A stretch of DNA of 64,000 bases from Hyphomonas sp. Mor2 (GTDB taxonomy: Bacteria; Pseudomonadota; Alphaproteobacteria; Caulobacterales; Hyphomonadaceae), in the NCBI RefSeq assembly GCF_001854405.1, contig NZ_CP017718.1:2604001-2668000 (forward strand), given 5' to 3'. Shown here in pieces: positions 52,569 through 64,000 of this stretch. Positions within the stretch are counted from its first letter, which is position 1. Each line of letters starts with the position of its first letter. Under the pieces are notes generated by a model. The model did no database searches. It had not been told where the DNA came from and was given only the letters and a program-made list of their open reading frames with translations. The position numbers were made by a program, and so were the translations under genes.

Positions 52569-52645
52569 GGGCCTGTAGCTCAGTTGGTTAGAGCGGACCG
52601 CTCATAACGGTCTGGTCGGGGGTTCAAGTCCCTCCGGGCCCACCA
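52569..52645 (+). tRNA. tRNA-Ile2 (anticodon CAT, lysidine-modified type)
   Basis: The 77 bases fold as a cloverleaf: acceptor GGGCCTG/CGGGCCC, D-stem GCTC/GAGC, anticodon stem GACCG/CGGTC with loop CTCATAA, T-stem GGGGG/CCCTC, then A73 and an encoded CCA. Anticodon CAT could mean Met or Ile2. C-G pairs at positions 4-69 and 5-68 and A73 are recognition features of the TilS-modified tRNA-Ile2, which favours that call over elongator Met. TATACT 20 bases upstream may be the -10 element. It is the attachment site of the island that follows. Confidence 0.85.
52615..52645. other. Predicted attL core in tRNA 3' half
   Basis: The tRNA T-arm and acceptor end overlap the integrase tail, as expected where a tyrosine recombinase used the tRNA 3' end for insertion. 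No second copy of this stretch was found within the window, so attR should lie beyond base 64,000. Exact core limits cannot be set from one side. Confidence 0.5.
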
Positions 52646-53772
52646 CTCCTTTTGCCATCCCCTGAAAACATTGAACTTTCTTCCGAAGATTGCCCCGCAA
52701 CGATATTTTGCGGGGCACTTTGTTCTATATATCTTCTAATCGCAGCGTCTGCGAGGCGCTGTTGATTGGCGCCTTTGGTGTAAATGGAAGCGGACCGCGT
52801 ATCGCTATGCCCAAGCTTTGCGGCGATCTCATTTTCGGTCGCACCAGCCTCAGCCATGCGAACGCCATCGGCTTTTCGTAGGCCATGAAGAGTCAACTCC
52901 GGCGGTAAACCCGCCGCGTTGACCCAGCGACGAACAGCAGCTCCAAACCCCTTCACCGAGAACGGTTTTCCAAATGCGGTTTGAATGTAGAGCAGGCCAT
53001 CGCCGGGGGCCGTGTCGAGCGCTTCCGCCAGTTCTGGCGTCACCAATAACGCAACGGCTTTGCCCGTCTTTTGTTGATCAATTCGAAGATGTGTCGCGTC
53101 CCGATGTTGCCGCCCGATGCGAACCACATCGGATCTCCGCAATCCGCCATCAAAAGCCAAATGATAGGCCGTCCTCGCAGTGGTTCCGTAAGGGTGTGCC
53201 GATTTGAACTGTTCTCGTTGATCCCGCGTCCAAGGCTTCCAGCTACTTTCGCCCATTTTGAGACGCTTCACGCCTTCAACCGGATTGTACGTGACGTGCC
53301 CTGAGTCCATCGCCCAATTGTACATGGCTTTCATTGCTTTGAGCATGTTGTTCGCGGCGCCTGGGGTCTTCGCGCGCTTATCGCGGCCAGCTTGAACTGC
53401 CTCTTTGGTCAACGTCCGGCAGTCGCGATGCCCACTCTCCTTCGATATCCGCAACAGAATTGAACGGCGCTGCGCCTGCGTCGCAGGCTTCGCTTCTTTG
53501 AATCGCGGGCTGATGAAGTACTGGTTGATCAACCAGGCAAGCGAGTGAACCGCAACATATGGGTTCTTTGGCCGAGGCCGGTCACTCGCCTGCATATCTT
53601 CGAGAATGGCTTTGTATTCAGCCACCCACGCTTCTGAGCCTTCTGGTGACCGTATGCGGCGTTTCTTGTTTTTCCCATCCACAACCAAGCGGACATACCA
53701 ACGCTTTCGACCAGAGCGGTCGTGATCAAACATGGTAAAAGGATAGCGCACGGATGCCATTGGATCTCTCAT
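52624..53772 (-). CDS. Tyrosine recombinase/integrase of the island
   Basis: The 382-residue integrase has a SAM-like core-binding part (YVAVHSLAWLINQYFISPRF) and a catalytic domain. Its conserved residues are Arg212 (DGGLRRSD), His296-x2-Arg299 (LTLHGLRKAD), His322 (LGHSD) and Tyr331 (SIYTKG). ATG at 53772 overlaps the stop of the excisionase-like gene (ATGA), which decides the start. The last codons and stop lie inside the 3' end of tRNA-Ile2, so insertion was at that tRNA. A long hairpin is embedded near its 3' end. Confidence 0.95.
   Translation of the reverse strand: MRDPMASVRYPFTMFDHDRSGRKRWYVRLVVDGKNKKRRIRSPEGSEAWVAEYKAILEDMQASDRPRPKNPYVAVHSLAWLINQYFISPRFKEAKPATQAQRRSILLRISKESGHRDCRTLTKEAVQAGRDKRAKTPGAANNMLKAMKAMYNWAMDSGHVTYNPVEGVKRLKMGESSWKPWTRDQREQFKSAHPYGTTARTAYHLAFDGGLRRSDVVRIGRQHRDATHLRIDQQKTGKAVALLVTPELAEALDTAPGDGLLYIQTAFGKPFSVKGFGAAVRRWVNAAGLPPELTLHGLRKADGVRMAEAGATENEIAAKLGHSDTRSASIYTKGANQQRLADAAIRRYIEQSAPQNIVAGQSSEESSMFSGDGKRSGGPGGT
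52691..52717 (+). terminator. Strong hairpin within integrase 3' end, downstream of tRNA
   Basis: TGCCCCGCAA (52691-52700) and TTGCGGGGCA (52708-52717) pair perfectly over 10 bases around a 7-base loop, followed on the plus strand by CTTTGTT. It is 45 bases beyond the tRNA and could terminate its transcript even though it lies in integrase coding sequence. Confidence 0.5.
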
Positions 53773-54008
53773 AGCGCCTGCCCTTTCCAATCATCATTTG
53801 CAGGCTCACCCACACGAGGCAGACTCTCAACGTGTTCGTCAAGGTCTCGGATATCCCAAACCCGCTCGCCTCCGCGTTTAAGAGGCTGAGCGACCGCGCC
53901 TTCAGCAACTAGGCGCCGCAGGGTTGTCTCAGATGTACCGATGTAGCGGGCGGCCACCGGCGCGTTCATCAAACGTGGCCATCCACTAATTGTAAGCTGG
54001 TTTTTCAC
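53769..54008 (-). CDS. Excisionase/AlpA-like helix-turn-helix protein
   Basis: The 79-residue protein starts with GTG at 54008 (GAGG 8 bases upstream). A MerR-type helix-turn-helix is visible: MNAPVAARYIGTSETTLRRL and VAQPLKRGGERVWDIRDLDE. Such proteins bend DNA for excision or activate the integrase gene. Its stop overlaps the integrase start, giving a coupled pair. Confidence 0.8.
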   Translation of the reverse strand: MKNQLTISGWPRLMNAPVAARYIGTSETTLRRLVAEGAVAQPLKRGGERVWDIRDLDEHVESLPRVGEPANDDWKGQAL

Positions 54009-54141: not shown

Positions 54142-54801
54142 CTACGCCTTAGAAGAGTTTCGTTCCGAGACGATCCTGCGCATGACCGTGACCAACTCAT
54201 TTTCGCTAATCTCAGGATCCAGTTTTGCAAAAATAGTCTTCACGAAATTATGTGCGGGCGTTAGCCCGCTTCCTTCATGATAATCCAGCGTAAAGCGTCG
54301 GTTTAACGTGTCAGACCAGAAATAAGCGATCCGCCTAACCGTGTTTTCCAACGCAAAATTGCGTTTACGACCCTTTGCAGGCGCAAACCTTTCTGACCCC
54401 ATATCCGCCGCAACCAACAATAGCGATAGCAAGTAATCTAAGTCCGCTAAGTAAGCACTGCCTATTCGCCCTTCTGACCCACCAATCACAGGAATGTCTG
54501 GATTTGCATCGCGGTCATTCTCGTGAAGTGCAGCAAAATAAAGATCGGTTTCCAGGTCTTCGTATTCGGCAGACGAAAATAGCGCTCTGAACCGCTCCGT
54601 TTCTGCTTTTAAGCTTTGATACCGCTTGCGAAGCGCTTGGTCCTTGGAATCATCATTCAAAACACGCTTATCCAGCGGATAGCGCCGAAGTAACGCTGTT
54701 AACTCGCGCAACACACGTTCATCGGGAACAAAAGCGAATTGCTTGCATAACTGCGCGACAAACTCCGCATCTGCGCCGCTTTCACTTTCTGGCTGGTCCA
54801 T
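54142..54801 (-). CDS. Hypothetical island protein (219 residues)
   Basis: No family is recognised. It is mainly alpha-helical and charged, with a hydrophobic patch YLADLDYLLSLLLVAADMGS in the middle and no signal peptide. It follows the TetR gene by 9 bases, with AAGGA before its ATG, so it is probably cotranscribed with and perhaps controlled by that regulator. The DNA is AT-richer than the core genome, as in the rest of the island. Confidence 0.7.
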   Translation of the reverse strand: MDQPESESGADAEFVAQLCKQFAFVPDERVLRELTALLRRYPLDKRVLNDDSKDQALRKRYQSLKAETERFRALFSSAEYEDLETDLYFAALHENDRDANPDIPVIGGSEGRIGSAYLADLDYLLSLLLVAADMGSERFAPAKGRKRNFALENTVRRIAYFWSDTLNRRFTLDYHEGSGLTPAHNFVKTIFAKLDPEISENELVTVMRRIVSERNSSKA

Positions 54802-54810
54802 AGCTGATCC

Positions 54811-55497
54811 TTAGATCTTCTTCACGCCTGTTTGCTCGGTGGGCTCTTTTGCCTTTAGCTTCTCAAATTTCACCTTACCCAAGGCATTTTTCAACAGACT
54901 AACGATAGCCTCGTGATACTCAGATCGTTTCAGCGGTTCGTTGTAGGATTTTGACGTAATTGCATCTGTGAGAATACCGAACGTCGCTTGAATTGCGACT
55001 TCCACCTGAATGCGGTCTTCTTTTTTTGCTTCATCAGGCATCAAACCAACCACCTCATCGACCACGTATTCGCGATACCTATCGAAAGGCTTGCGATGTT
55101 CGATGTCCGAACAACCCCGTTTTACCGCCATGCGAACGACACCTGCGAACTCTTTCCCGGCCCAGAGAGAAACAACTGCATCTGTAAGTGCTTCGGCAGG
55201 TTTAGAACTTGAAGCTATAGAAGGCATCACTTTTTCGAAAGCGCGACGAGCACTCGCAAAAGTGTGGGATGTAATAAAACTCAAGAATGCTTCTTTATCT
55301 GTGAACCGAACGTAGAATGCTCCAACAGAAGTCTCTGCGGCTTTGGAGAATCTTGAGATGGAAATCCCCTCAAAATCAGCGCCCCCGAGCAGTCGTCTGC
55401 CCTCTTGATAGAGCTTAAGCGTTTTCGGTTCCGACAAACTAGCTAACACTCTGCGGCGACCGCGTGATTTATGAGCATTGATAGGAACAGTAACCAT
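54811..55497 (-). CDS. TetR-family regulator
   Basis: The N-terminal helix-turn-helix reads LLGGADFEGISISRFSKAAE then TSVGAFYVRFTDKEAFLSFI, the canonical TetR pattern. The rest is a helical ligand/dimer domain, and the C-terminus is lysine-rich. The ATG at 55497 is chosen because the next upstream ATG lies within a palindrome that is a likely operator. It stands between the integration genes and the GHKL pair and could govern both directions. Confidence 0.85.
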   Translation of the reverse strand: MVTVPINAHKSRGRRRVLASLSEPKTLKLYQEGRRLLGGADFEGISISRFSKAAETSVGAFYVRFTDKEAFLSFITSHTFASARRAFEKVMPSIASSSKPAEALTDAVVSLWAGKEFAGVVRMAVKRGCSDIEHRKPFDRYREYVVDEVVGLMPDEAKKEDRIQVEVAIQATFGILTDAITSKSYNEPLKRSEYHEAIVSLLKNALGKVKFEKLKAKEPTEQTGVKKI

Positions 55498-55517
55498 CCA
55501 CCGACACGTAGCATACA

Positions 55518-55543
55518 ATATTTAGAATTAGAATTCTGAATAT
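55518..55543. promoter_or_regulatory. 26-bp imperfect palindrome, likely TetR operator
   Basis: The arms ATATTTAGAATT (55518-55529) and AATTCTGAATAT (55532-55543) match at all but one pair around AG. It is 20 bases upstream of the TetR start and about 230 bases before the GHKL gene. The rest of this 274-bp gap (55544-55771) shows no gene. Confidence 0.65.
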
Positions 55544-55771
55544 AGATCAACCCGGTTTCACGCACGAACTTTTTCGAGATGGTCAATTGGAATCGTCGAT
55601 AGCTAGAATCTGGAAGTGTAGGGTGTTTCCAGATCGCTCATATCCAACTAAAGAAATGAGGAGACTAGGAGCGTCAAGTAATTGAAGTGATTCACAGGAC
55701 GGGGGCATTTGATCCGAACGACTTGTAAACTCAGATCCAATAAATAGTATTTTGTCCACGAGGGGAAATCA

Positions 55772-57892
55772 TTGAGCCGAACTGAAATAACGTTTCGACC
55801 TCGGTCCCGATTGCTGCAGTTGCTTGGGGATCAACTAATTCGCAGCGCTCGCTTGGCGGTATTTGAGTTGGTCAAAAACTCATACGATGCTGACGCTCGC
55901 AAGGTAGTGGTCTCAATGAACAATTTGGGTAGCAGTGATGCCACAATCACCGTTTCAGACGACGGTGAAGGCATGTCCGCGAAGATCGTCCGCGACATTT
56001 GGTTCGTTCCGGGTCATGACCACAAAGAAAAAACGAAACTGGCGGGAACACGTAGCGAGCTAGGTAGATCGCCGCTTGGAGAAAAAGGTGTCGGAAGATT
56101 TGCGGCTCACAAACTCGGTAACAAAATCAAGCTGGTCACCAAAGCAAATGGCCACGATGAGGTGTTCGTAGATTTGGACTGGGGCAAGTTGATGGAGAAA
56201 GAGTATCTCGAAGATGCTAGCGCCACCATCGTCGAACGGCCCGCGGAAGTCTTCGATTCGGCGAAAACTGGTACCAAAATCGAAATCTCTGATCTACGCG
56301 ATGATCAATGGAGCAAAGGCGACCTAAGGAGACTATATCGTGATATTACTTCGATTTGTTCACCGTTTGATGGTCCGGACGAGTTCGACGTTACGCTAGA
56401 GGTCCCAGGACGAGAAGGAGAGTTTGACGACATTCCGGATACAGTCGAAATTCTCAAACGAGCCCCTTGGCACTTCCGGTTCACGTTCGACGGCGACAAA
56501 TTTGAGTGGAAATACGAGTTTCGTCCTCCCGCTAACTTGGTGGGACGTATCGAACGTCGAAAATTGAACTCTTCGAGTTCGGAACGATTGTTATTGCCGC
56601 GAACTCCCGGCAGCAAAAAAACGGACGTGTTGACTGCAACCGCCGAGCTTCTCGAGGGCATTGGCCCCGTCTCGGGTGAATTCTACGTCTACGATCGTGG
56701 ACCAGAAGTACTCGGGAAGGGCGCGGAAAAACAACTGGTCACCCGATTCTTGGATGCTAACGGCGGAGTACGGGTCTATCGCGATGGTGTGAGGGTCTAC
56801 AACTACGGTGACGAGGACGACGATTGGCTAAGTCTTGACCATCGACGATTTATCACCCCCACAAAAAACATTAGTCGAAACAATGTTTTAGGCGCCATCT
56901 CTGTCTCGGCGGAAACCAGCGGTCAACTGAAAGAAAAAACTAATAGAGAAGGGTTTGTCGAAAACTCCGCGTATGATGCGCTTAAGCGGATCGTATTGGG
57001 AGCTTTCCAAATCTTGGAAACTGAAAGGGCGCTGGATAAAGAAGCTATCCGCAAGACGGAGCGAAAACCTGTTCAAGTCGAATCAGATCGCATTAAGGAC
57101 CCGATCGCAGAGATAAGACGACTTGCTGAACAAGAAAAGCTATCCGACAAATTTGCCCCTAGCATCGATCGGCTGGAAAAAAATTATAACGAACTTCGCG
57201 AAACGATGCTTCAAGCCGGATTATCTGGATTAGGGCTCGCCACAGTATTCCACGAAATTCAGCATGGGGTAACCGCGTTGCTGCGGCGGGCAAAAGGCGG
57301 AGCTTCGGTCGAGGATATCGTGCAACAAGCTCAAGAGCTCGAGCAGCTACTGAATGGAATATCCGGGCTTTTACGCAAGTCCGAGAAGACTACCATTTCA
57401 GCGCGTGACTTGGTCAAAAAAGTACGCCAAGCATCGCTTATACGATTTCGCACTCACAGAGTGGAATTGGTATCACCGCTAATGCAAGACGGCGACTCAG
57501 ATTTCGACATAAAGATCAATAGCCGTCTTTTTGTGGGCGCAATGACCAATCTGTTGGATAATTCGTTTTATTGGATGAGAGCCCGATGGCCTTCTCGTCC
57601 AGCCGATAACGCCCCCAGCCCAAGGAAAATCTATATAGGCGCAAGCGACGATTTCGAGTTTGGGCCAGCCATCGTAATTGCGGACACTGGGCCGGGGTTT
57701 CAGGACGATCCGGAAACTCTAGTAGAACCATTCTTTACTCGGCGTCCCGACGGCATGGGCCTTGGTTTTTACTATACGAACTTGGTCATGGAGTTGTCTG
57801 GCGGCGAGCTGGTTTTTCCACACGTTGACGAAGTCGATGTTCCCAAAGGATTTGATGGCGCATTGGTTGCGATGGTGTTCCCAGGAAAATGA
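55772..57892 (+). CDS. Double-GHKL ATPase: Hsp90/MutL-like N-domain plus histidine-kinase-like C-domain
   Basis: TTG start, with AGGGGA 5 bases upstream. Residues 1-200 form a GHKL ATPase of the Hsp90/MutL type: N-box ELVKNSYDADA (E32, N36, D39), VSDDGEGM and LGEKGVGRFAAHKLG. A beta-rich middle part follows (about 200-400). Then come a helical segment with a possible phospho-acceptor in VFHEIQHGVTALL (His494) and a second GHKL domain with NLLDNSFYWM (Asn597), IADTGPGF and GMGLGFYYTNLVMEL. It is translationally coupled (ATGA) to a receiver-like protein, so a phosphorelay-type pair is likely. The architecture, not any known defence family, is what is recognised. Confidence 0.88.
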   Translation: MSRTEITFRPRSRLLQLLGDQLIRSARLAVFELVKNSYDADARKVVVSMNNLGSSDATITVSDDGEGMSAKIVRDIWFVPGHDHKEKTKLAGTRSELGRSPLGEKGVGRFAAHKLGNKIKLVTKANGHDEVFVDLDWGKLMEKEYLEDASATIVERPAEVFDSAKTGTKIEISDLRDDQWSKGDLRRLYRDITSICSPFDGPDEFDVTLEVPGREGEFDDIPDTVEILKRAPWHFRFTFDGDKFEWKYEFRPPANLVGRIERRKLNSSSSERLLLPRTPGSKKTDVLTATAELLEGIGPVSGEFYVYDRGPEVLGKGAEKQLVTRFLDANGGVRVYRDGVRVYNYGDEDDDWLSLDHRRFITPTKNISRNNVLGAISVSAETSGQLKEKTNREGFVENSAYDALKRIVLGAFQILETERALDKEAIRKTERKPVQVESDRIKDPIAEIRRLAEQEKLSDKFAPSIDRLEKNYNELRETMLQAGLSGLGLATVFHEIQHGVTALLRRAKGGASVEDIVQQAQELEQLLNGISGLLRKSEKTTISARDLVKKVRQASLIRFRTHRVELVSPLMQDGDSDFDIKINSRLFVGAMTNLLDNSFYWMRARWPSRPADNAPSPRKIYIGASDDFEFGPAIVIADTGPGFQDDPETLVEPFFTRRPDGMGLGFYYTNLVMELSGGELVFPHVDEVDVPKGFDGALVAMVFPGK

Positions 57893-59190
57893 TTATTCAA
57901 CCGGCGAGAATAGTGGTAATTGACAATAACAGCGAGCACCTAAAGGCCCTTGTAGATGCTTTGTCTGGCTTGGGTTCAGCGTGTTTACCATTTCACTATC
58001 AAGACGCGCATCCTGAAAGACACCTTCTGGCAGGAGCGAGATTTATTTTCTGTGACCTGCATCTGATTTCGGACGCAGTGACTTCAGACAAACAAAAAGA
58101 ATATGCAAACATTGCGAGTATGCTTTTGGAGGCCCTTCGCGATGATCATGGCCCTTATGTCCTTGTCATTTGGTCTGAGTATCCAGACGATGTCGAGGCC
58201 CTGAAAAGATACGTCGCTGAACTGGAAGATGGAAAAAAGCCGCTGTTAGTCCATGCACTCAACAAGAACGATTATATTCACACGAATGCAAACGACGGAG
58301 AATTCGCGGGAAACTTAGTTCAAGCCGTCGCCGAGTTGTTTCAAAGCCTTCCGGGATTAGCCGCGATGTTGCAGTGGGAGCAAATCGTATCCGACGCGGC
58401 TGCACAAACCACATCATCGCTTTGGTCGCATTGCACCGGTGACACAACTGCAAGACGTGATGAGTCTCTCAGCAACACTTTGGGGAAACTCGCGAACGGG
58501 GCGTCCGGAGAACGTTCAGCAAAGGTTTTTCCTGGCAGAAGCGTGATAAGTGCCTTGAACCCGTTGCTGGCGGATCAACTCGAGCAAAACGAGATCGACG
58601 AAACCATCTGGAAGGAAGCAGTTCAGTTTAAGAAAGCAGACTTTGCAGCGTCCGACGCGAGCTTATACACGATGTTGCACGTAGAATGCCCGACATCTCA
58701 CAACGCAACTGAGCGAGGAGCGTTGGTCGAGCTCCCAAAATCATTGGAAAAAGACAAGGCCTTTGAAGCAGTTTTTGGATACGATCGAAAGTCAATCATT
58801 CATGAATTCGGATACCGCGGTGAGCGGCTGGATGACGCTGTAAAACAAGCGACGTGGTGCTGTTTGCAGATCAACGCTGCTTGTGACCAAGCGCAGGGGC
58901 ATCCAGGTTTAGTGCCTTATACATTATCGTGCTTTGTACCGACCGCGATTAAAAAACGAGAAGGCAAACGCGATAGCGTATTCCAGTCTCGGGGAATGGT
59001 CATTGATGAGATCGAACAGTTTTTGTTCAGTCATGGCCGCTTCACCACCGGCATGACACAAAGACGGGCAATTGAACTCAAGCCACTAATGCGGCTGCGG
59101 GGTCAGTTGTTGGATCAAGCGGTGTTTGATATTCGGGTTCAGGCCGCTCGCCTGGGCACGATTGAACCGTTTCGATCGAAGAATCCATAA
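57889..59190 (+). CDS. Receiver-like protein with unknown C-terminal effector region
   Basis: The first 130 residues look like a response-regulator receiver: acidic Asp12 (IVVIDNNSEH, lacking the usual second acid), putative phospho-acceptor Asp56 (FIFCDLHLIS), Ser96 (VLVIWSEY) and Lys126 (LNKND). The remaining 300 residues match no family I know. They include WEQIVSDAAAQTTSSLWSHC, LYTMLHVECPTSHNATERGA and a helical C-terminus. It starts inside the stop of the double-GHKL gene. Its last 113 bases overlap the 3' end of the convergent methyltransferase gene. Confidence 0.85.
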   Translation: MIIQPARIVVIDNNSEHLKALVDALSGLGSACLPFHYQDAHPERHLLAGARFIFCDLHLISDAVTSDKQKEYANIASMLLEALRDDHGPYVLVIWSEYPDDVEALKRYVAELEDGKKPLLVHALNKNDYIHTNANDGEFAGNLVQAVAELFQSLPGLAAMLQWEQIVSDAAAQTTSSLWSHCTGDTTARRDESLSNTLGKLANGASGERSAKVFPGRSVISALNPLLADQLEQNEIDETIWKEAVQFKKADFAASDASLYTMLHVECPTSHNATERGALVELPKSLEKDKAFEAVFGYDRKSIIHEFGYRGERLDDAVKQATWCCLQINAACDQAQGHPGLVPYTLSCFVPTAIKKREGKRDSVFQSRGMVIDEIEQFLFSHGRFTTGMTQRRAIELKPLMRLRGQLLDQAVFDIRVQAARLGTIEPFRSKNP

Positions 59191-60121
59191 TGCATTTGAC
59201 CACCCATTTCATTACGGGGGGACAAACACCATTGCCCAACATATGTACGCGCTGTCGGCGAGTACCAAACGGCATCTCATAGCGTTTCGTGAACCCCATA
59301 GCGCGCGCGAGTTCTGGAACCTGGAGCATCCTCATCGTATGACCGCCATCAACTGGCTCAACTAATGCAAAACGATCGACGGTCGTGATCGTACGAAGAG
59401 GACGATCCAGCGGCTGCCAACCGCCGGATCCGTCGGTACCGTAGTACACAATCAAAAAGGGCTGATTTTTCCCAACCTCGGAGAATGCACGTTCCGCTCG
59501 CTCAAGTGTGGCGGGAGCTCGCTTTTCTGAATAAAGTTGGGAAGTTTTCCACGTTCCTGGTTTATCCAAAACGGTCTGCACCGTCTTGGTAGTTTTCCGG
59601 TTTGGGACCTTCATCTTCACCGCTCGGTTTTTGCCGCAGACCAAAAACAAACGTCTTCTACTCTGAGGAACACTGAAATAAGCCGCATCTAATACCAGCT
59701 CATTGATCGAGTATCCCAGATCGCGAAGTTCCCGTTTCATCTCTTCGTATCTCGACCAAGGCCGCATATGAACGACGTTCTCCATAACGACCCAGTCGGG
59801 GTCGAACACCTTGGCATAACGAATTGCCTGCAACGCTGTCGCTCTGCTCTCTTCCGAGCGGGGTGCAGCTCCTTTCGCGCAGGTGTGGTTGGTGCATTCC
59901 GGGGACGCGAGGAGCAGCTCAATTGGTCCGATTTCTTCCCTGAGAGCCTCAGGATCAATATCCTCCAGCCGGCTAGTTTTTACCGTAGCATCGGGGAAAT
60001 TGTGTTTGAATGTTTGGGTGGCGAGACCCCATAGATCAACTCCGCCAACAATTTGCGCACCCGCTGCACGCGCCCCGAAACTGCTACCCCCACCCCCGCA
60101 GAATAAGTCTAGCGTGCGCAT
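59078..60121 (-). CDS. dcm: C5-cytosine DNA methyltransferase with SPECT motif IV
   Basis: Motif I is TLDLFCGGGGSSFGARAAGA; motif VI is VMENVVHMRPWS; motif VIII is QSRRRLFLVCG; motif X is MLGNGVCPPVMKWV. The catalytic Cys76 lies in ASPECTNHTCAKG, where SPEC replaces the usual PPCQ. ATG at 60121 has GGAGG 10 bases upstream. It transfers methyl from AdoMet to cytosine. The partners vsr and an Mrr-type nuclease are next to it. The recognition sequence cannot be read from the protein. Confidence 0.93.
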   Translation of the reverse strand: MRTLDLFCGGGGSSFGARAAGAQIVGGVDLWGLATQTFKHNFPDATVKTSRLEDIDPEALREEIGPIELLLASPECTNHTCAKGAAPRSEESRATALQAIRYAKVFDPDWVVMENVVHMRPWSRYEEMKRELRDLGYSINELVLDAAYFSVPQSRRRLFLVCGKNRAVKMKVPNRKTTKTVQTVLDKPGTWKTSQLYSEKRAPATLERAERAFSEVGKNQPFLIVYYGTDGSGGWQPLDRPLRTITTVDRFALVEPVDGGHTMRMLQVPELARAMGFTKRYEMPFGTRRQRVHMLGNGVCPPVMKWVVKCIMDSSIETVQSCPGERPEPEYQTPLDPTTDPAAALVA

Positions 60122-60219
60122 TTTTTGACGACCTCCAGAGTTCACGCTGTGCCGCTTACCAGGTTTACGCTCGATGCGCCAGGTAGGCTTGGACGTCGTA
60201 AAGTGAGATAATCCGCGTT

Positions 60220-60642
60220 ATGGATAGGTTAAGCTCCTCCGCCAGAAGCGCCAATATGGCGAAAATCAAAGGACGTGACACTAAACCAGAGTTACGACTG
60301 CGGAGTTCGTTGCATAAGCAAGGGCTGAGATTCAGAGTAACTTACAAATCACTTCCAGGTACCCCTGATATAGTGTTTGTATCAGCGAGAACTGCTGTCT
60401 TTGTCCACGGCTGCTTCTGGCATCGCCATTCTGGTTGCAAGTTCACAACGATGCCGAAAACACGGGTTGAATTCTGGAAAAAGAAATTCACGGACAACGT
60501 GAATCGAGATGCGCGAGTTAAGGAGGCGTTGGAGAAAATCGGATGGAACGTTTTGGTCGTTTGGGAATGCGAAATCGCTTCAGAGACCGGTTTGCAATCG
60601 AGATCTGAATGGGTCGCTTCTCACCTAAATAAAAGGCATTAG
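60220..60642 (+). CDS. vsr: Very short patch repair endonuclease (Vsr)
   Basis: Vsr nicks at T:G mismatches caused by 5-methylcytosine deamination and so accompanies cytosine methyltransferases. The signature segments are GTPDIVFVSARTAVFVHGCF and FWHRHSGCKF (Asp, His, Cys of the active/zinc site), plus EFWKKKFTDNVNRDARV. 140 residues. It is divergent from dcm across a 98-bp gap and overlaps the restriction gene's stop by 4 bases (TTAG). Confidence 0.96.
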   Translation: MDRLSSSARSANMAKIKGRDTKPELRLRSSLHKQGLRFRVTYKSLPGTPDIVFVSARTAVFVHGCFWHRHSGCKFTTMPKTRVEFWKKKFTDNVNRDARVKEALEKIGWNVLVVWECEIASETGLQSRSEWVASHLNKRH

Positions 60643-61817
60643 CAACCAATTGGAAAATAGGCTTTCAGCCAGTCTCGCAGCTCAGAAGGTGAGGAGATAT
60701 CCGCATCCGTCAAGATCTGAACTATGTCCCGTGCCGCAATCACGACAATTGGGTGTTCGTCTTCTTTCAGTTCCTGGTACGCTTGCCGATCGAGCCACGA
60801 GGTGGTTACCAGAACACCAAATTGCCTGTGACGAAGACGCGAAATAAGTCTGGAGAGCGATTTGACCCCTACACCTCGCTCGCTCCAACACTTCGCTTCG
60901 AGTGCAAAATCGACAAGAACTGATGAAGGGCCGCTGCCAATTCTATATTGGCCAATGGCGTCACGTCCACCGTCCCTGTGACGGCGCGTGACTTCAATGC
61001 TGACGACATTTGGAAGGGCCATTTCTGTCAGCTTCGCCGCGCAGTGCTCAAATTCATACGGAGATGCTTCAAAGTGCGAGATGATCACATCAACAAGCAT
61101 CCTATCTCTTTTTGTGAGCGGTTTCTGCTCATTTGGAGTTCGCCATTCCACTGAGCGTTCGGCGACCAAGCGTCTCCTTTTGCCGGTCTTGAGCCACTCG
61201 GACCAAGCGTCAGGGGCTAAACGCTCATCCGGTGCACCTGCAATCAAACTATCGAGCCACTGTCTTTCGATTATCGGGACATCTAGTATCGAAAAAAGGG
61301 CGCGATAGTTCTGGAATCGATTTCCGCCTGAGCTCCTCCAAAGCGCCACGAGGGATCCTTTCTCTGAAACGTCGGAAGTTCCTGGAACCGCGAGCCCTAA
61401 GAATTTGACGTTCCTTCCAACATCGCCATAACGCGCAAAAATGAACGTGGGCGGTACCAGGGCTCTTTGCTCAGGTCCACCATAGGCGGAATGAAAAATG
61501 CTACGGAGGATACGGTTACCCTGTCGACCAGTGTCATGAAGAGCGTGCCCAGGTTTTTTGTTGTCGCCGTAATAACTGAAAACTCCAGTTTCCAAGTCGA
61601 CGCTGTCTGGCCAATCTGCATCTGCGTTGGTCGTGTAGAGCATAAGCATTTCCAGCTTTTTTTCCAATGTTCCACGAAACCTAAACCCGCCTTGGTTACT
61701 TAGAGAAAGGAGCTTTGGAAATGGGTCGCTACCAAAGGTATTATCGACTCCACCCTCGTATACCGCGTCTACGACTAGATCGGCCCTTTCAAGGTCCGCA
61801 AAAGACACAGTTTTCAT
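60639..61817 (-). CDS. Restriction endonuclease, AspBHI-N/Mrr type
   Basis: ATG at 61817 has AGGA 9 bases upstream; ATG at 61823 is only 3 bases from the AAGGA. The N-terminal half has the AspBHI-N-like features SLSNQGGFRFRG, VFSYYGDNKKPGHALHDTGR and QGNRILRSIF. The C-terminal Mrr-like nuclease has Asp286 (DGGRDAIGQYRI), Glu307 and Lys309 (FALEAKCWS). AspBHI-type enzymes cut DNA containing 5-methylcytosine; whether this one does is unknown. It is the last gene of a minus-strand run with a serine hydrolase and a membrane protein. Confidence 0.85.
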   Translation of the reverse strand: MKTVSFADLERADLVVDAVYEGGVDNTFGSDPFPKLLSLSNQGGFRFRGTLEKKLEMLMLYTTNADADWPDSVDLETGVFSYYGDNKKPGHALHDTGRQGNRILRSIFHSAYGGPEQRALVPPTFIFARYGDVGRNVKFLGLAVPGTSDVSEKGSLVALWRSSGGNRFQNYRALFSILDVPIIERQWLDSLIAGAPDERLAPDAWSEWLKTGKRRRLVAERSVEWRTPNEQKPLTKRDRMLVDVIISHFEASPYEFEHCAAKLTEMALPNVVSIEVTRRHRDGGRDAIGQYRIGSGPSSVLVDFALEAKCWSERGVGVKSLSRLISRLRHRQFGVLVTTSWLDRQAYQELKEDEHPIVVIAARDIVQILTDADISSPSELRDWLKAYFPIGC

Positions 61818-61854
61818 ATCCATTCTTCCTTCGGCTTTCTCCCGGTTCGCTCGG

Positions 61855-62769
61855 TCATCTCAGAGTAGATCGAAGTACATCCAAGAGCCTCCCGTCTCGT
61901 AGGTATCGAGTTGCGGAATGTGCATCCTCACGACCGTTATCAACGTCTGCGTAGTTCTCGATATTGCTACAACCGAACGTCTCCATGTTTAGTTCGCCAT
62001 GCAGTGCTACAAAGTCCTCAGGATCAGAGAAGTTAGTCCAGCGCTGCACACTATCGGGCCTAAAGAACGGCGATCGAATCTTTTTCTTCACCAATTTGAT
62101 TCCGAGCGGAGAACCCATTGTTGCAAAGAGGTTAATCCTGTTCGGTTCCGATAACTCTCTGAGAATTTCGAACCCAACAACCGTTCCCAGTGAATGTGAA
62201 ATCACCACGACACTTTCATATTCGTCCAAGTCCTCGAACACTTGTTGTTTGACTCGGGTCTTGATCGCGGTTCGTAGTTCGGCATCTTCAAGGTAAACAC
62301 TCGCTTGTGGCAAGAACACCCTTGCAAGAAATCTTCCTTGCGTGGGTAGCGCACTCTCGAGCGCCCGCGCTATCGCCTTCACCCAATGCTTATGGATACC
62401 GTCGGCCATTTCTGAAGTGGACTCAGAGTTGGACGTGGTATGAAAATCCCGAACTTGCGCATCGGTTAATCCAGATCTGGCCATAAACAACTTAGCAAGT
62501 TCTGCTTCGCTCCGAGACGAGTAAACTTGCGCTGCTCCGCCCATTCCGGTGGCGTTTGACCCATTTGTCTCAACTGTATTGACCGCATTAGCGAGAAGAT
62601 CAGCGTAATAGGCGCAGTCAAGCACCACATCCTTCAGGAGCGTATTTGGGCCTTCTATCTCAGAGTTTAGCGCACTGCGCCATTTCTCCATGATTTGCTC
62701 TCGGGTTGAGCGTTCATTGTTTATGCCGTGGATGAGTATTACTTTTTTGAGCTGATTCACTTTAATCAC
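61855..62769 (-). CDS. Alpha/beta-fold serine hydrolase of island
   Basis: Start is GTG, overlapping the stop of the membrane-protein gene (GTGA). KKVILIHGINNERSTREQIM is the first strand and oxyanion loop; nucleophile Ser193 is in VVVISHSLGTVVGFEILREL. Asp252 (SDPEDF) and His284 (DAHSATRY) complete a plausible triad. 304 residues. It resembles lipases/esterases and the hydrolase effectors found in some defence systems; no substrate can be given. Confidence 0.8.
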   Translation of the reverse strand: MIKVNQLKKVILIHGINNERSTREQIMEKWRSALNSEIEGPNTLLKDVVLDCAYYADLLANAVNTVETNGSNATGMGGAAQVYSSRSEAELAKLFMARSGLTDAQVRDFHTTSNSESTSEMADGIHKHWVKAIARALESALPTQGRFLARVFLPQASVYLEDAELRTAIKTRVKQQVFEDLDEYESVVVISHSLGTVVGFEILRELSEPNRINLFATMGSPLGIKLVKKKIRSPFFRPDSVQRWTNFSDPEDFVALHGELNMETFGCSNIENYADVDNGREDAHSATRYLRDGRLLDVLRSTLR

Positions 62770-64000
62770 TCCGGATTAATTGGATCGAATTCTGAATGTT
62801 TCACCAAATCCATTTTTTCGAGAAGGCTATCGATAACTTCGATTGGCAGCTCTGCGAGACTTCGTCCGCGGATTCTTGCAGCCGCTTTTAGAAAGGGAAC
62901 TGGTGCGTCCAATTTTGTTTGATTAGCGAATTTCCATCCTTGAGAGAAAACCGGCACCGTTCCTACACATCGCACCATTTTCCGTCGCCTGAATCCTGAG
63001 CGCGTGTACTCCGGTCTTTCTGACGGTGCATCATTTTTTGATGGATGTACTTTTTTTACGGCTGGAAGATCCGCGAAGGCGACCAACCCCCTTTTGGTCT
63101 TTTTCCAGGTGATTCTTTCTGCACACAACACGGCAAGGTCGATTGGAAGATATGTTAGGTCTTCAGCTCTCATGAAGTTGCGAAAAAAGAACAACGAGAA
63201 AGCCAATGGCGCAAAACTAAACAACAACGAGACCGCATGAGACAGTGTCGGTTGTTCGTACATCGTCCACAGAGCGATGCCGGGTGCTAACAGCGAAAGT
63301 ATGCATAGGACACCAAAAAACAGCTTATTCACTTGAGCCGGAAACATTGCGGGCATTAAGCCGAACTCTGCCATATAGTGGCTTGTTCTGGCTATGTTGT
63401 CGTAGTCATTCGAGAACTCATACAAGTAGCCAGCCAATACAGAGTTAAACGGATTGACGTGTTTGCTGGATCGAATCCGGTCAGCAACTGCATTGACTGC
63501 GCTGAGAGTCTGGCTGCTTTCATGAAACTCGTTTTCATAGTCGCTCACATCTCCTTCGATGTCCCACTCAGTAGCGAGAAATACATCGCCCGGGTAAAGT
63601 GATGAGAACAGAGCAGTTTTTCCGAAATAGTTCGGGACTCCATAATAGCGATCGTCCACTTTCACAAAAACAGTGGTCATTGCGCTGTCTACTTTTCTTC
63701 CAGACACCGTGACCTTGAACAGTCTCTCACGCGAGTTTTCAGCCGTTACTCTTATGTTCGATTTCGCAGGTGCGCATATCTCCTCGGGATAGCTGTCGGT
63801 GTAGAAAGTGATTTCCCTCTTTCTCGCAAACGACCGGTCGGTAGGAATCGCGGACAACCAATCTTCGTATCGATGCCTAAGCCGATCCGCGGGACTTTGA
63901 TCGGGTCCACGATCCTCGCTCTTTCCTGGTCCAGGCCAATCCATCTTGACGGCTTTTTGCTTCTTACGTGGAAGGCGGGCTAAGAATCGGTCTTTGCTAT
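62766..64000 (-). CDS. Membrane protein of island, 5' end probably beyond window
   Basis: At least 392 residues are encoded downstream of an ATG at 63944. The frame stays open to the window edge (basic stretch DRFLARLPRKKQKAVK), and no ribosome-binding site precedes that ATG, so the gene may start further right. The middle has one clear helical hairpin (LFFGVLCILSLLAPGIALWT and LLFSFAPLAFSLFFF). The N-terminal part is soluble with beta-like segments (RLFKVTVSGRKVDSAMTTVF). No family is recognised. It is translationally coupled to the hydrolase, so the two likely act together. Confidence 0.7.
   Translation of the reverse strand, partial: SKDRFLARLPRKKQKAVKMDWPGPGKSEDRGPDQSPADRLRHRYEDWLSAIPTDRSFARKREITFYTDSYPEEICAPAKSNIRVTAENSRERLFKVTVSGRKVDSAMTTVFVKVDDRYYGVPNYFGKTALFSSLYPGDVFLATEWDIEGDVSDYENEFHESSQTLSAVNAVADRIRSSKHVNPFNSVLAGYLYEFSNDYDNIARTSHYMAEFGLMPAMFPAQVNKLFFGVLCILSLLAPGIALWTMYEQPTLSHAVSLLFSFAPLAFSLFFFRNFMRAEDLTYLPIDLAVLCAERITWKKTKRGLVAFADLPAVKKVHPSKNDAPSERPEYTRSGFRRRKMVRCVGTVPVFSQGWKFANQTKLDAPVPFLKAAARIRGRSLAELPIEVIDSLLEKMDLVKHSEFDPINPE

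What the first reader, a model, noticed from the sequence alone, without database searches (positions are those of the whole stretch)
54811..64000. Candidate new defence/genome-maintenance system: two-component-like GHKL pair welded to a Dcm-Vsr-Mrr module and a hydrolase/membrane pair
Within 9 kb of a tRNA-anchored island lie a TetR regulator, a coupled double-GHKL ATPase plus receiver-like protein, dcm, vsr, an AspBHI-N/Mrr nuclease, a serine hydrolase and a membrane protein. The last three form one coupled run. Dcm-Vsr-nuclease alone would be ordinary restriction-modification. The sensor-like pair and the hydrolase/membrane pair are not part of that known set. MutL-like GHKL ATPases near C5 methyltransferases are known from other predicted systems (for example with Z1 helicases), but no Z1 helicase is seen here.
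Basis: partly seen in the sequence, partly recalled or inferred. Interest (0 to 1): 0.85.

Follow-up and report, generated by a model that had tools for sequence, protein, structure and literature searches.

The report
Kinase-regulator pair tied to DNA methylation defence
A mobile 12.6-kilobase element carries an uncommon sensor-kinase and response-regulator pair that travels with DNA-methylation and DNA-repair or DNA-cutting genes in many bacteria; the association is already published, but this compact branch and a possible toxin-like end on its regulator are little described.

Summary
The genes are real, except that the "membrane protein" is the end of a caspase-like protease running past the window. 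They fill a 12.6-kb element in tRNA-Met bounded by an 18-bp repeat; relatives show the empty site. The double-GHKL protein looks like a histidine kinase, its partner like a response regulator. Of 36 loci with this pair, 34 have a C5 methyltransferase, 28 a Vsr and 35 at least one within 10 kb, while the nuclease varies, so the linkage asked for exists. It was largely published in 2021 (HEF_HK/Response_reg_2). None of 33 regulators or 32 kinases here match those Pfam models, yet the kinases are homologous over most of their length: a compact sister branch. The hydrolase/caspase pair is near none of the other 35 and is a separate cassette of a published pairing. New hints: the regulator's last domain folds like MazF/CcdB toxins (structure only; sequence profiles gave nothing), and the nuclease is an AspBHI/LpnPI relative with most of the 5-methylcytosine pocket, beside a cytosine methyltransferase. 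Likely mechanism, inferred: a MutL/MORC-type ATPase senses DNA state and drives a phosphorelay to that domain. Verdict: new variant of a known kind.

The parts
52569..52645 (+). tRNA-Met (CAT), integration site
   Evidence: ARAGORN
52628..52645 (+). left 18-bp attachment repeat (3' end of the tRNA); the right copy lies outside the window at equivalent position 65241-65258
   Evidence: empty site in 3 of 5 relatives read: L136 (sequence after the tRNA matches 65260 onwards), L137 (65269), L140 (65273); L138 and L139 have other sequence there
52624..53790 (-). tyrosine integrase
   Evidence: Phage_integrase 1.1e-15
53769..54008 (-). 79-aa ORF, excisionase-like helix-turn-helix by eye
   Evidence: ORF; assignment recalled, not tested
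54142..54801 (-). 219-aa ORF of unknown family, 9 bp downstream of the TetR-like gene
   Evidence: no family
54811..55518 (-). TetR-like regulator (weak); no relative near the 35 other pairs
   Evidence: E 6.3e-5, below cut-off
55772..57892 (+). histidine kinase with N-terminal MutL/MORC-type GHKL ATPase, H-box-like H494 E495 and C-terminal HATPase_c
   Evidence: homologous to the kinases beside PF19192 regulators
57889..59190 (+). response regulator: receiver domain (D12, D56, S96, K126), helical middle, C-terminal MazF/CcdB-like barrel (predicted)
59078..60145 (-). C5 cytosine DNA methyltransferase (DrmMII-like in PADLOC)
   Evidence: searches (PF00145 5.4e-35; 3.2e-90), motifs
60220..60642 (+). 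Vsr mismatch endonuclease
   Evidence: 7e-29; TIGR00632 over cut-off
60639..61823 (-). AspBHI/LpnPI-type modification-dependent nuclease (SRA-like + Mrr_cat)
   Evidence: (AspBHI 4oc8 E 1.8e-112), (mREase_II 2e-151)
61855..62769 (-). alpha/beta (serine) hydrolase, SHSLG motif; partner of the caspase, separate cassette
   Evidence: (weak)
62766..64000 (-). caspase-like protease with two hydrophobic segments (C-terminal part; gene continues to equivalent position 64958)

Best explanation
The block is a 12.6-kb tRNA-integrated element with two separable defence-type cassettes. Cassette 1 (kinase, regulator, dcm, vsr, AspBHI-type nuclease) is a compact sister branch of the published kinase/regulator systems linked to restriction-modification. 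Inferred mechanism: the N-terminal MutL/MORC-like ATPase senses DNA or nuclease state, the kinase phosphorylates itself at H494 and passes phosphate to D56 of the regulator, and the C-terminal barrel of the regulator acts as output, either a growth-arresting effector or a switch on the neighbouring enzymes. Dcm marks DNA, Vsr repairs T:G mismatches from deaminated 5mC, and the nuclease cuts 5mC/5hmC DNA in a context that the resident methyltransferase presumably does not make. Cassette 2 (caspase plus alpha/beta hydrolase) is an independent cell-death-type pair. Shown: gene content, island ends, homologies, linkage, conserved residues. Inferred: the signal, the phosphotransfer, the role of the output domain, compatibility of methyltransferase and nuclease, and defence as the purpose.
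Against: No function was tested. One of 36 loci (L045) has neither dcm nor vsr, and wider double-GHKL kinases sit with another or no methyltransferase in 3 of 4 inspected plasmids. The AspBHI-type nuclease is also found without the pair: 0 of 5 inspected plasmid loci have it, 4 of 5 have a C5 methyltransferase, 3 of 5 an MZA set, so the nuclease may belong to the methyltransferase and not to the pair. The window regulator has N13 where 32 of 33 have D, and position 96 is A in 3 of 33. Regulator homology to the published family is weak (hhalign P 0.003). A 5mC-dependent nuclease beside a 5mC methyltransferase is self-damaging unless contexts differ; the methyltransferase's site is unknown. The loci are not all independent (24 clusters at 70%).
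Confidence: 0.6

Rival explanations
1. The pair is an expression or activity controller of the restriction-modification genes: it keeps methyltransferase, Vsr and nuclease in balance after transfer to a new host, and has no effector of its own.
Against: No DNA-binding family is found in the regulators by Pfam, and the last domain resembles MazF/CcdB in structure.
Confidence: 0.25
2. The kinase is a MutL stand-in that directs Vsr (and the nuclease) to mismatches or methylated sites: a genome-maintenance accessory of the methyltransferase.
For: HATPase_c_3 and weak MutL matches; MORC/paraMORC ATPases neighbour Vsr and methylases and were likened to MutL in VSR repair (PMC2292703 passages).
Against: It does not explain the phosphorelay residues kept in 32 of 32 kinases and the receiver residues in 33 of 33 regulators; no Vsr was found within 10 kb of 8 of 36 pairs, some with short flanks.
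Confidence: 0.1
3. One integrated system including hydrolase and caspase.
For: Same strand as the nuclease with a 31-bp gap; all within one 12.6-kb element.
Against: Hydrolase and caspase are near none of the other 35 pairs and stand without pair, dcm or vsr in five inspected plasmid loci.
Confidence: 0.04
4. Chance neighbours piled up in a defence island, with no shared function.
For: Defence genes cluster; other systems (AbiE, MZA) also sit by the pair.
Against: Nearly universal C5 methyltransferase/Vsr linkage across distant regulators, against a Vsr in 28 of 142 genomes of the class.
Confidence: 0.03

Closest known systems
HEF_HK / Response_reg_2 two-component-like systems (PF19191/PF19192; Bellieny-Rabelo et al. 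2021, PMC8011034; abstract, Introduction, Results and Discussion read, Methods and supplements not)
   Same: HATPase_c_3 + His-box + HATPase_c kinase beside a receiver protein; C5 methyltransferase, Vsr and type II nucleases nearby; kinases homologous over most of their length
   Different: Compact: as open frames, kinases mostly 700-730 aa against 980-1078, regulators mostly 425-490 against 525-721; 0 of 33 and 0 of 32 match the Pfam models; regulator similarity weak
MORC/paraMORC ATPases in restriction-modification (Iyer et al. 2008, PMC2292703, passages seen)
   Same: GHKL ATPase with cytosine methylases, Vsr and nucleases
   Different: Here joined to histidine-kinase parts and paired with a receiver protein; no helicase found in the window block
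MspJI family (AspBHI, LpnPI), type IIM
   Same: SRA-like plus Mrr_cat over the full length of AspBHI, most pocket residues kept; MspJI itself lies next to a C5 methyltransferase (PMC3874153 passage)
   Different: Embedded with kinase, regulator and Vsr; the residue aligned with N63 of the pocket is T; the methyltransferase has intact-looking motifs, while the one beside MspJI is thought inactive
Caspase plus alpha/beta-hydrolase pairing of VMAP ternary conflict systems (PMC7159879, passages seen)
   Same: Caspase-superfamily peptidase with neighbouring alpha/beta hydrolase
   Different: Stand-alone two-gene cassette here, caspase with two hydrophobic segments, no MoxR or vWA match among the island proteins scanned
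MZA anti-phage system and class 2 DISARM
   Same: MZA sets sit by the compact pair, dcm and vsr in 5 loci; the window methyltransferase scores as DrmMII
Detocs phosphorelay defence (recalled; only a search listing seen)
   Same: Histidine-kinase to receiver signalling ending in an effector
   Different: Different sensor and effector; no link to methyltransferases recalled; not tested

Membership tests
HEF_HK/Response_reg_2 (PF19191/PF19192) | Kinase matches PF19191 | tested here: not met
   0 of 32 kinases at E<=0.1
HEF_HK/Response_reg_2 (PF19191/PF19192) | Regulator matches PF19192 | tested here: not met
   0 of 33 regulators at E<=1; 0 of 8 host genomes (where no control rang)
HEF_HK/Response_reg_2 (PF19191/PF19192) | HATPase_c_3 + His-acid box + HATPase_c architecture | tested here: met
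   both in 32 of 32; H494 and E495 in 32 of 32
HEF_HK/Response_reg_2 (PF19191/PF19192) | Receiver fold with active Asp, acid pair, Thr and Lys | tested here: met
   in the window the second acid is N and the Thr position is S
HEF_HK/Response_reg_2 (PF19191/PF19192) | Kinase and regulator genes adjacent, R-M genes near | tested here: met
HEF_HK/Response_reg_2 (PF19191/PF19192) | Common descent of kinase | tested here: met
   hhalign E 1.9e-49, 676 columns, against 11 kinases beside PF19192 regulators
HEF_HK/Response_reg_2 (PF19191/PF19192) | Common descent of regulator | tested here: inconclusive
   three collinear weak matches, best P 0.003
MspJI/AspBHI modification-dependent nucleases | SRA-like N-terminus plus Mrr_cat | tested here: met
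   PF18062 7.1e-58, PF04471 6.7e-14
MspJI/AspBHI modification-dependent nucleases | 5mC pocket (W69, D71, Y82, Y83, G84, D85, K/R87, N63) | tested here: met
   all but N63 (T here), read off
MspJI/AspBHI modification-dependent nucleases | Cuts 5mC DNA | not testable with these tools
   needs enzyme assay
MazF/CcdB toxin superfamily (regulator C-terminus) | Barrel fold | tested here: inconclusive
   [not shown]
MazF/CcdB toxin superfamily (regulator C-terminus) | Sequence-profile similarity | tested here: not met
   hhalign P 0.6 (MazF) and 0.24 (CcdB); reversed controls 0.84 and 0.49, unrelated controls 0.12-0.25; no PDB sequence hit
[not shown]
   no such hit among 9 island proteins except a weak MzaB match of the kinase, E 0.0042
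DISARM class 2 | Other Drm proteins with DrmMII (set recalled) | tested here: not met
   only DrmMII scores among 9 island proteins
Caspase/alpha-beta-hydrolase conflict pairs | Caspase with adjacent hydrolase | tested here: met
Caspase/alpha-beta-hydrolase conflict pairs | VMAP/MoxR/vWA core genes | tested here: not met
   none among the island proteins scanned
Detocs | Its own kinase, relay and effector proteins | not tested
   recalled only

The most novel reading that the evidence does not exclude
The regulator is a phosphorelay-gated toxin: a MutL/MORC-type ATPase kinase guards a 5-methylcytosine restriction module and, when the module fails or foreign DNA is engaged, phosphorylates a receiver whose MazF/CcdB-like domain stops growth. 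If so, the whole kinase/regulator group, published only as a likely regulator of R-M, would be an abortive-infection back-up built on two-component signalling.
Probability: 0.18. Interest if true: 0.8.

Novelty: new variant of a known kind. Interest (0 to 1): 0.5.

Why it matters
Histidine-kinase-like signalling coupled to restriction-modification was predicted in 2021, and I found no described output for it. A compact branch, a candidate fold for the output domain, and a version paired with a probable 5mC-cutting nuclease beside its own methyltransferase make the question testable: does the phosphorelay hold a dangerous nuclease or a toxin in check? It would also join MutL/MORC ATPases, two-component signalling and abortive defence in one pathway.

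Tried and rejected
A single integrated system with hydrolase and caspase: rejected, since neither is near the other 35 pairs. TetR as part of the system: no relative near the other 35. MazF homology by sequence: of 30 MazF-family and 30 CcdB-family loci fetched I gave 24 of each to the script, 21 and 20 frames passed its length limit, three badly cut MazF frames were dropped, and the remaining 18 and 20 were compared by hhalign with reversed and unrelated controls; the controls did as well. A PDB profile search with the domain gave nothing. The first fold search on the whole regulator only showed the receiver, so the C-terminal part was folded alone. The viral structure library listed three PemK-like proteins among its ten best rows, none with E under 0.1: weak. 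The caspase ORF gave no Pfam family and no useful PDB sequence match. PF19192 in eight host genomes of the compact pair: none, but no control rang; since PMC8011034 lists Azotobacter among Vsr neighbours and the A. vinelandii genome here shows only the compact pair, that study's gene groups may already include compact members (inference, not shown). Own-order search with the regulator alone: only the window's own genome, 1 of 299; phylum search with the profile: 3 of 398 including itself; PF19192 was found in 3 of 289 class and 8 of 299 phylum genomes. Rows left out: L030, L035, L044 and L045 from the distance test; L035 (a broken pair), L044 and L045 (found later) from the alignments, and L030 from the kinase alignment; 3 of 7 matching plasmid records were not read as loci. 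Literature searches. In one search, for a response regulator with MazF, only PMC8011034 seemed to bear on it among the 10 of 23 listed by title and abstract, and it shows no occurrence of MazF.

Full report
WHAT IS THERE. The window lies in a 3.63-Mb genome held as one contig. An integrase gene (52624-53790, minus) overlaps the 3' end of tRNA-Met (52569-52645). The last 18 bases of the tRNA recur exactly at window-equivalent 65241-65258, past the window's end. In a same-genus genome (L136) the tRNA is followed directly by the sequence that here lies from 65260 onwards; L137 and L140 show the same from 65269 and 65273, while L138 and L139 have other sequence there. The element is therefore 12.6 kb. 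Its 1-kb bins from 54000 on have G+C of 0.47-0.53 against about 0.56-0.62 outside; the integrase end does not differ. Inside are the integrase, a small ORF, an unknown 219-aa ORF, a weak TetR-like gene, the kinase/regulator pair, dcm, vsr, the nuclease, the hydrolase and a caspase-like protease.

KNOWN OR NEW. Bellieny-Rabelo et al. 2021 (PMC8011034; Introduction, Results and Discussion read) described HEF_HK (PF19191) and Response_reg_2 (PF19192): 91.6% linkage in 644 regions, C5 methyltransferases, Vsr in 20 genera, and EcoRII-C and MvaI_BcnI nucleases nearby. The present pair has the same anatomy and company. But 0 of 33 regulators and 0 of 32 kinases match the two Pfam models, and the proteins are shorter: mostly 700-730 and 425-490 aa as open frames, against 980-1078 and 525-721 in the PF19192-positive loci L054-L064, of which 10 of 11 have a C5 methyltransferase and 6 of 11 a Vsr in the stretch read. 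Profile comparison shows the kinases to be homologous over 676 columns (E 1.9e-49), while the regulators show only three weak collinear matches (best P 0.003). I therefore file it as a compact sister branch and not as a member of the Pfam families. GHKL ATPases with cytosine methylases and Vsr were noted earlier (Iyer et al. 2008, PMC2292703, passages). More distant double-GHKL kinases on four plasmids have varied partners: one with a response regulator and a cytosine methyltransferase (Campylobacter armoricus), one with a class I methyltransferase, two with none annotated; my scan found no dcm or vsr near the last three, so the methyltransferase link is not universal in the wider group.

NUCLEASE AND METHYLTRANSFERASE. 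The nuclease aligns over its length with AspBHI (E 1.8e-112) and its N-terminal domain with LpnPI; the residues that PMC4499157 (passages) lists for the 5mC pocket are kept except N63, which is T; the WPD and YxGD parts are kept in the four other AspBHI-type loci too. The methyltransferase shows a cysteine in an SPEC context, ENV, QxRRR and GNGVCP (motif meanings recalled). A 5mC-dependent nuclease beside a 5mC methyltransferase is odd but has precedent: MspJI lies next to a methyltransferase thought inactive, and such nucleases tolerate methyltransferases whose sites lack their required neighbour base (PMC3874153 passages). The AspBHI-type nuclease also occurs without the pair: in five inspected plasmid loci none has the pair, four have a C5 methyltransferase (three of these with an MZA set) and the fifth a Vsr-like frame. 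So it recurs with cytosine methyltransferases whether or not the pair is there.

SECOND CASSETTE. The caspase and hydrolase overlap by 4 bp. In plasmids the caspase was matched in 12 records, all of which are among the 55 records with the hydrolase. In five inspected loci the two genes are adjacent, and my own scan of those stretches found no pair, dcm or vsr. A caspase domain with an always-neighbouring alpha/beta hydrolase is described for VMAP conflict systems, and a membrane-linked two-gene caspase system too (PMC7159879 passages). It is a separate cassette.

VERDICT. What remains of interest is the compact branch, the possible MazF/CcdB-like output and the probable 5mC-cutting nuclease in the same block. 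Interest 0.5.

Noticed in passing
window 62766-64000, continuing to equivalent 64958 (L002:14766-16958): The 'membrane protein' is the end of a 730-aa caspase-like protease with two hydrophobic segments, cut by the window edge.
   Followed up: yes
window 52628-52645 and equivalent 65241-65258; L136, L137, L140: Exact 18-bp attachment repeat and empty sites in three relatives define a 12.6-kb integrative element.
   Followed up: yes
L005, L018, L024, L025, L029 (and L037): A conserved 74-81-aa ORF precedes the kinase; in the first five the cluster is kinase-regulator-vsr-dcm and no nuclease was identified.
   Followed up: partly
L007, L016, L022, L023: An AbiE-type toxin-antitoxin pair sits between the regulator and vsr/dcm in these MZA-type loci.
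   Followed up: no
L145 (Campylobacter armoricus plasmid) and 43 Campylobacter plasmid records: A distant double-GHKL kinase with a response regulator and a convergent C5 methyltransferase; in the rows listed the Campylobacter records are plasmids of about 50-60 kb.
   Followed up: partly
L035 (Demequina litorisediminis): Kinase, regulator and methyltransferase-like frames are broken into several pieces, apparently decayed or badly sequenced.
   Followed up: no
L070, L071, L074 (Rhizobium, Thalassospira and Ensifer plasmids): An AspBHI-type nuclease lies directly beside an MZA set and a C5 methyltransferase without the kinase/regulator pair.
   Followed up: partly
window 54142-54801: 219-aa ORF of unknown family, 9 bp downstream of the TetR-like gene.
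   Followed up: no
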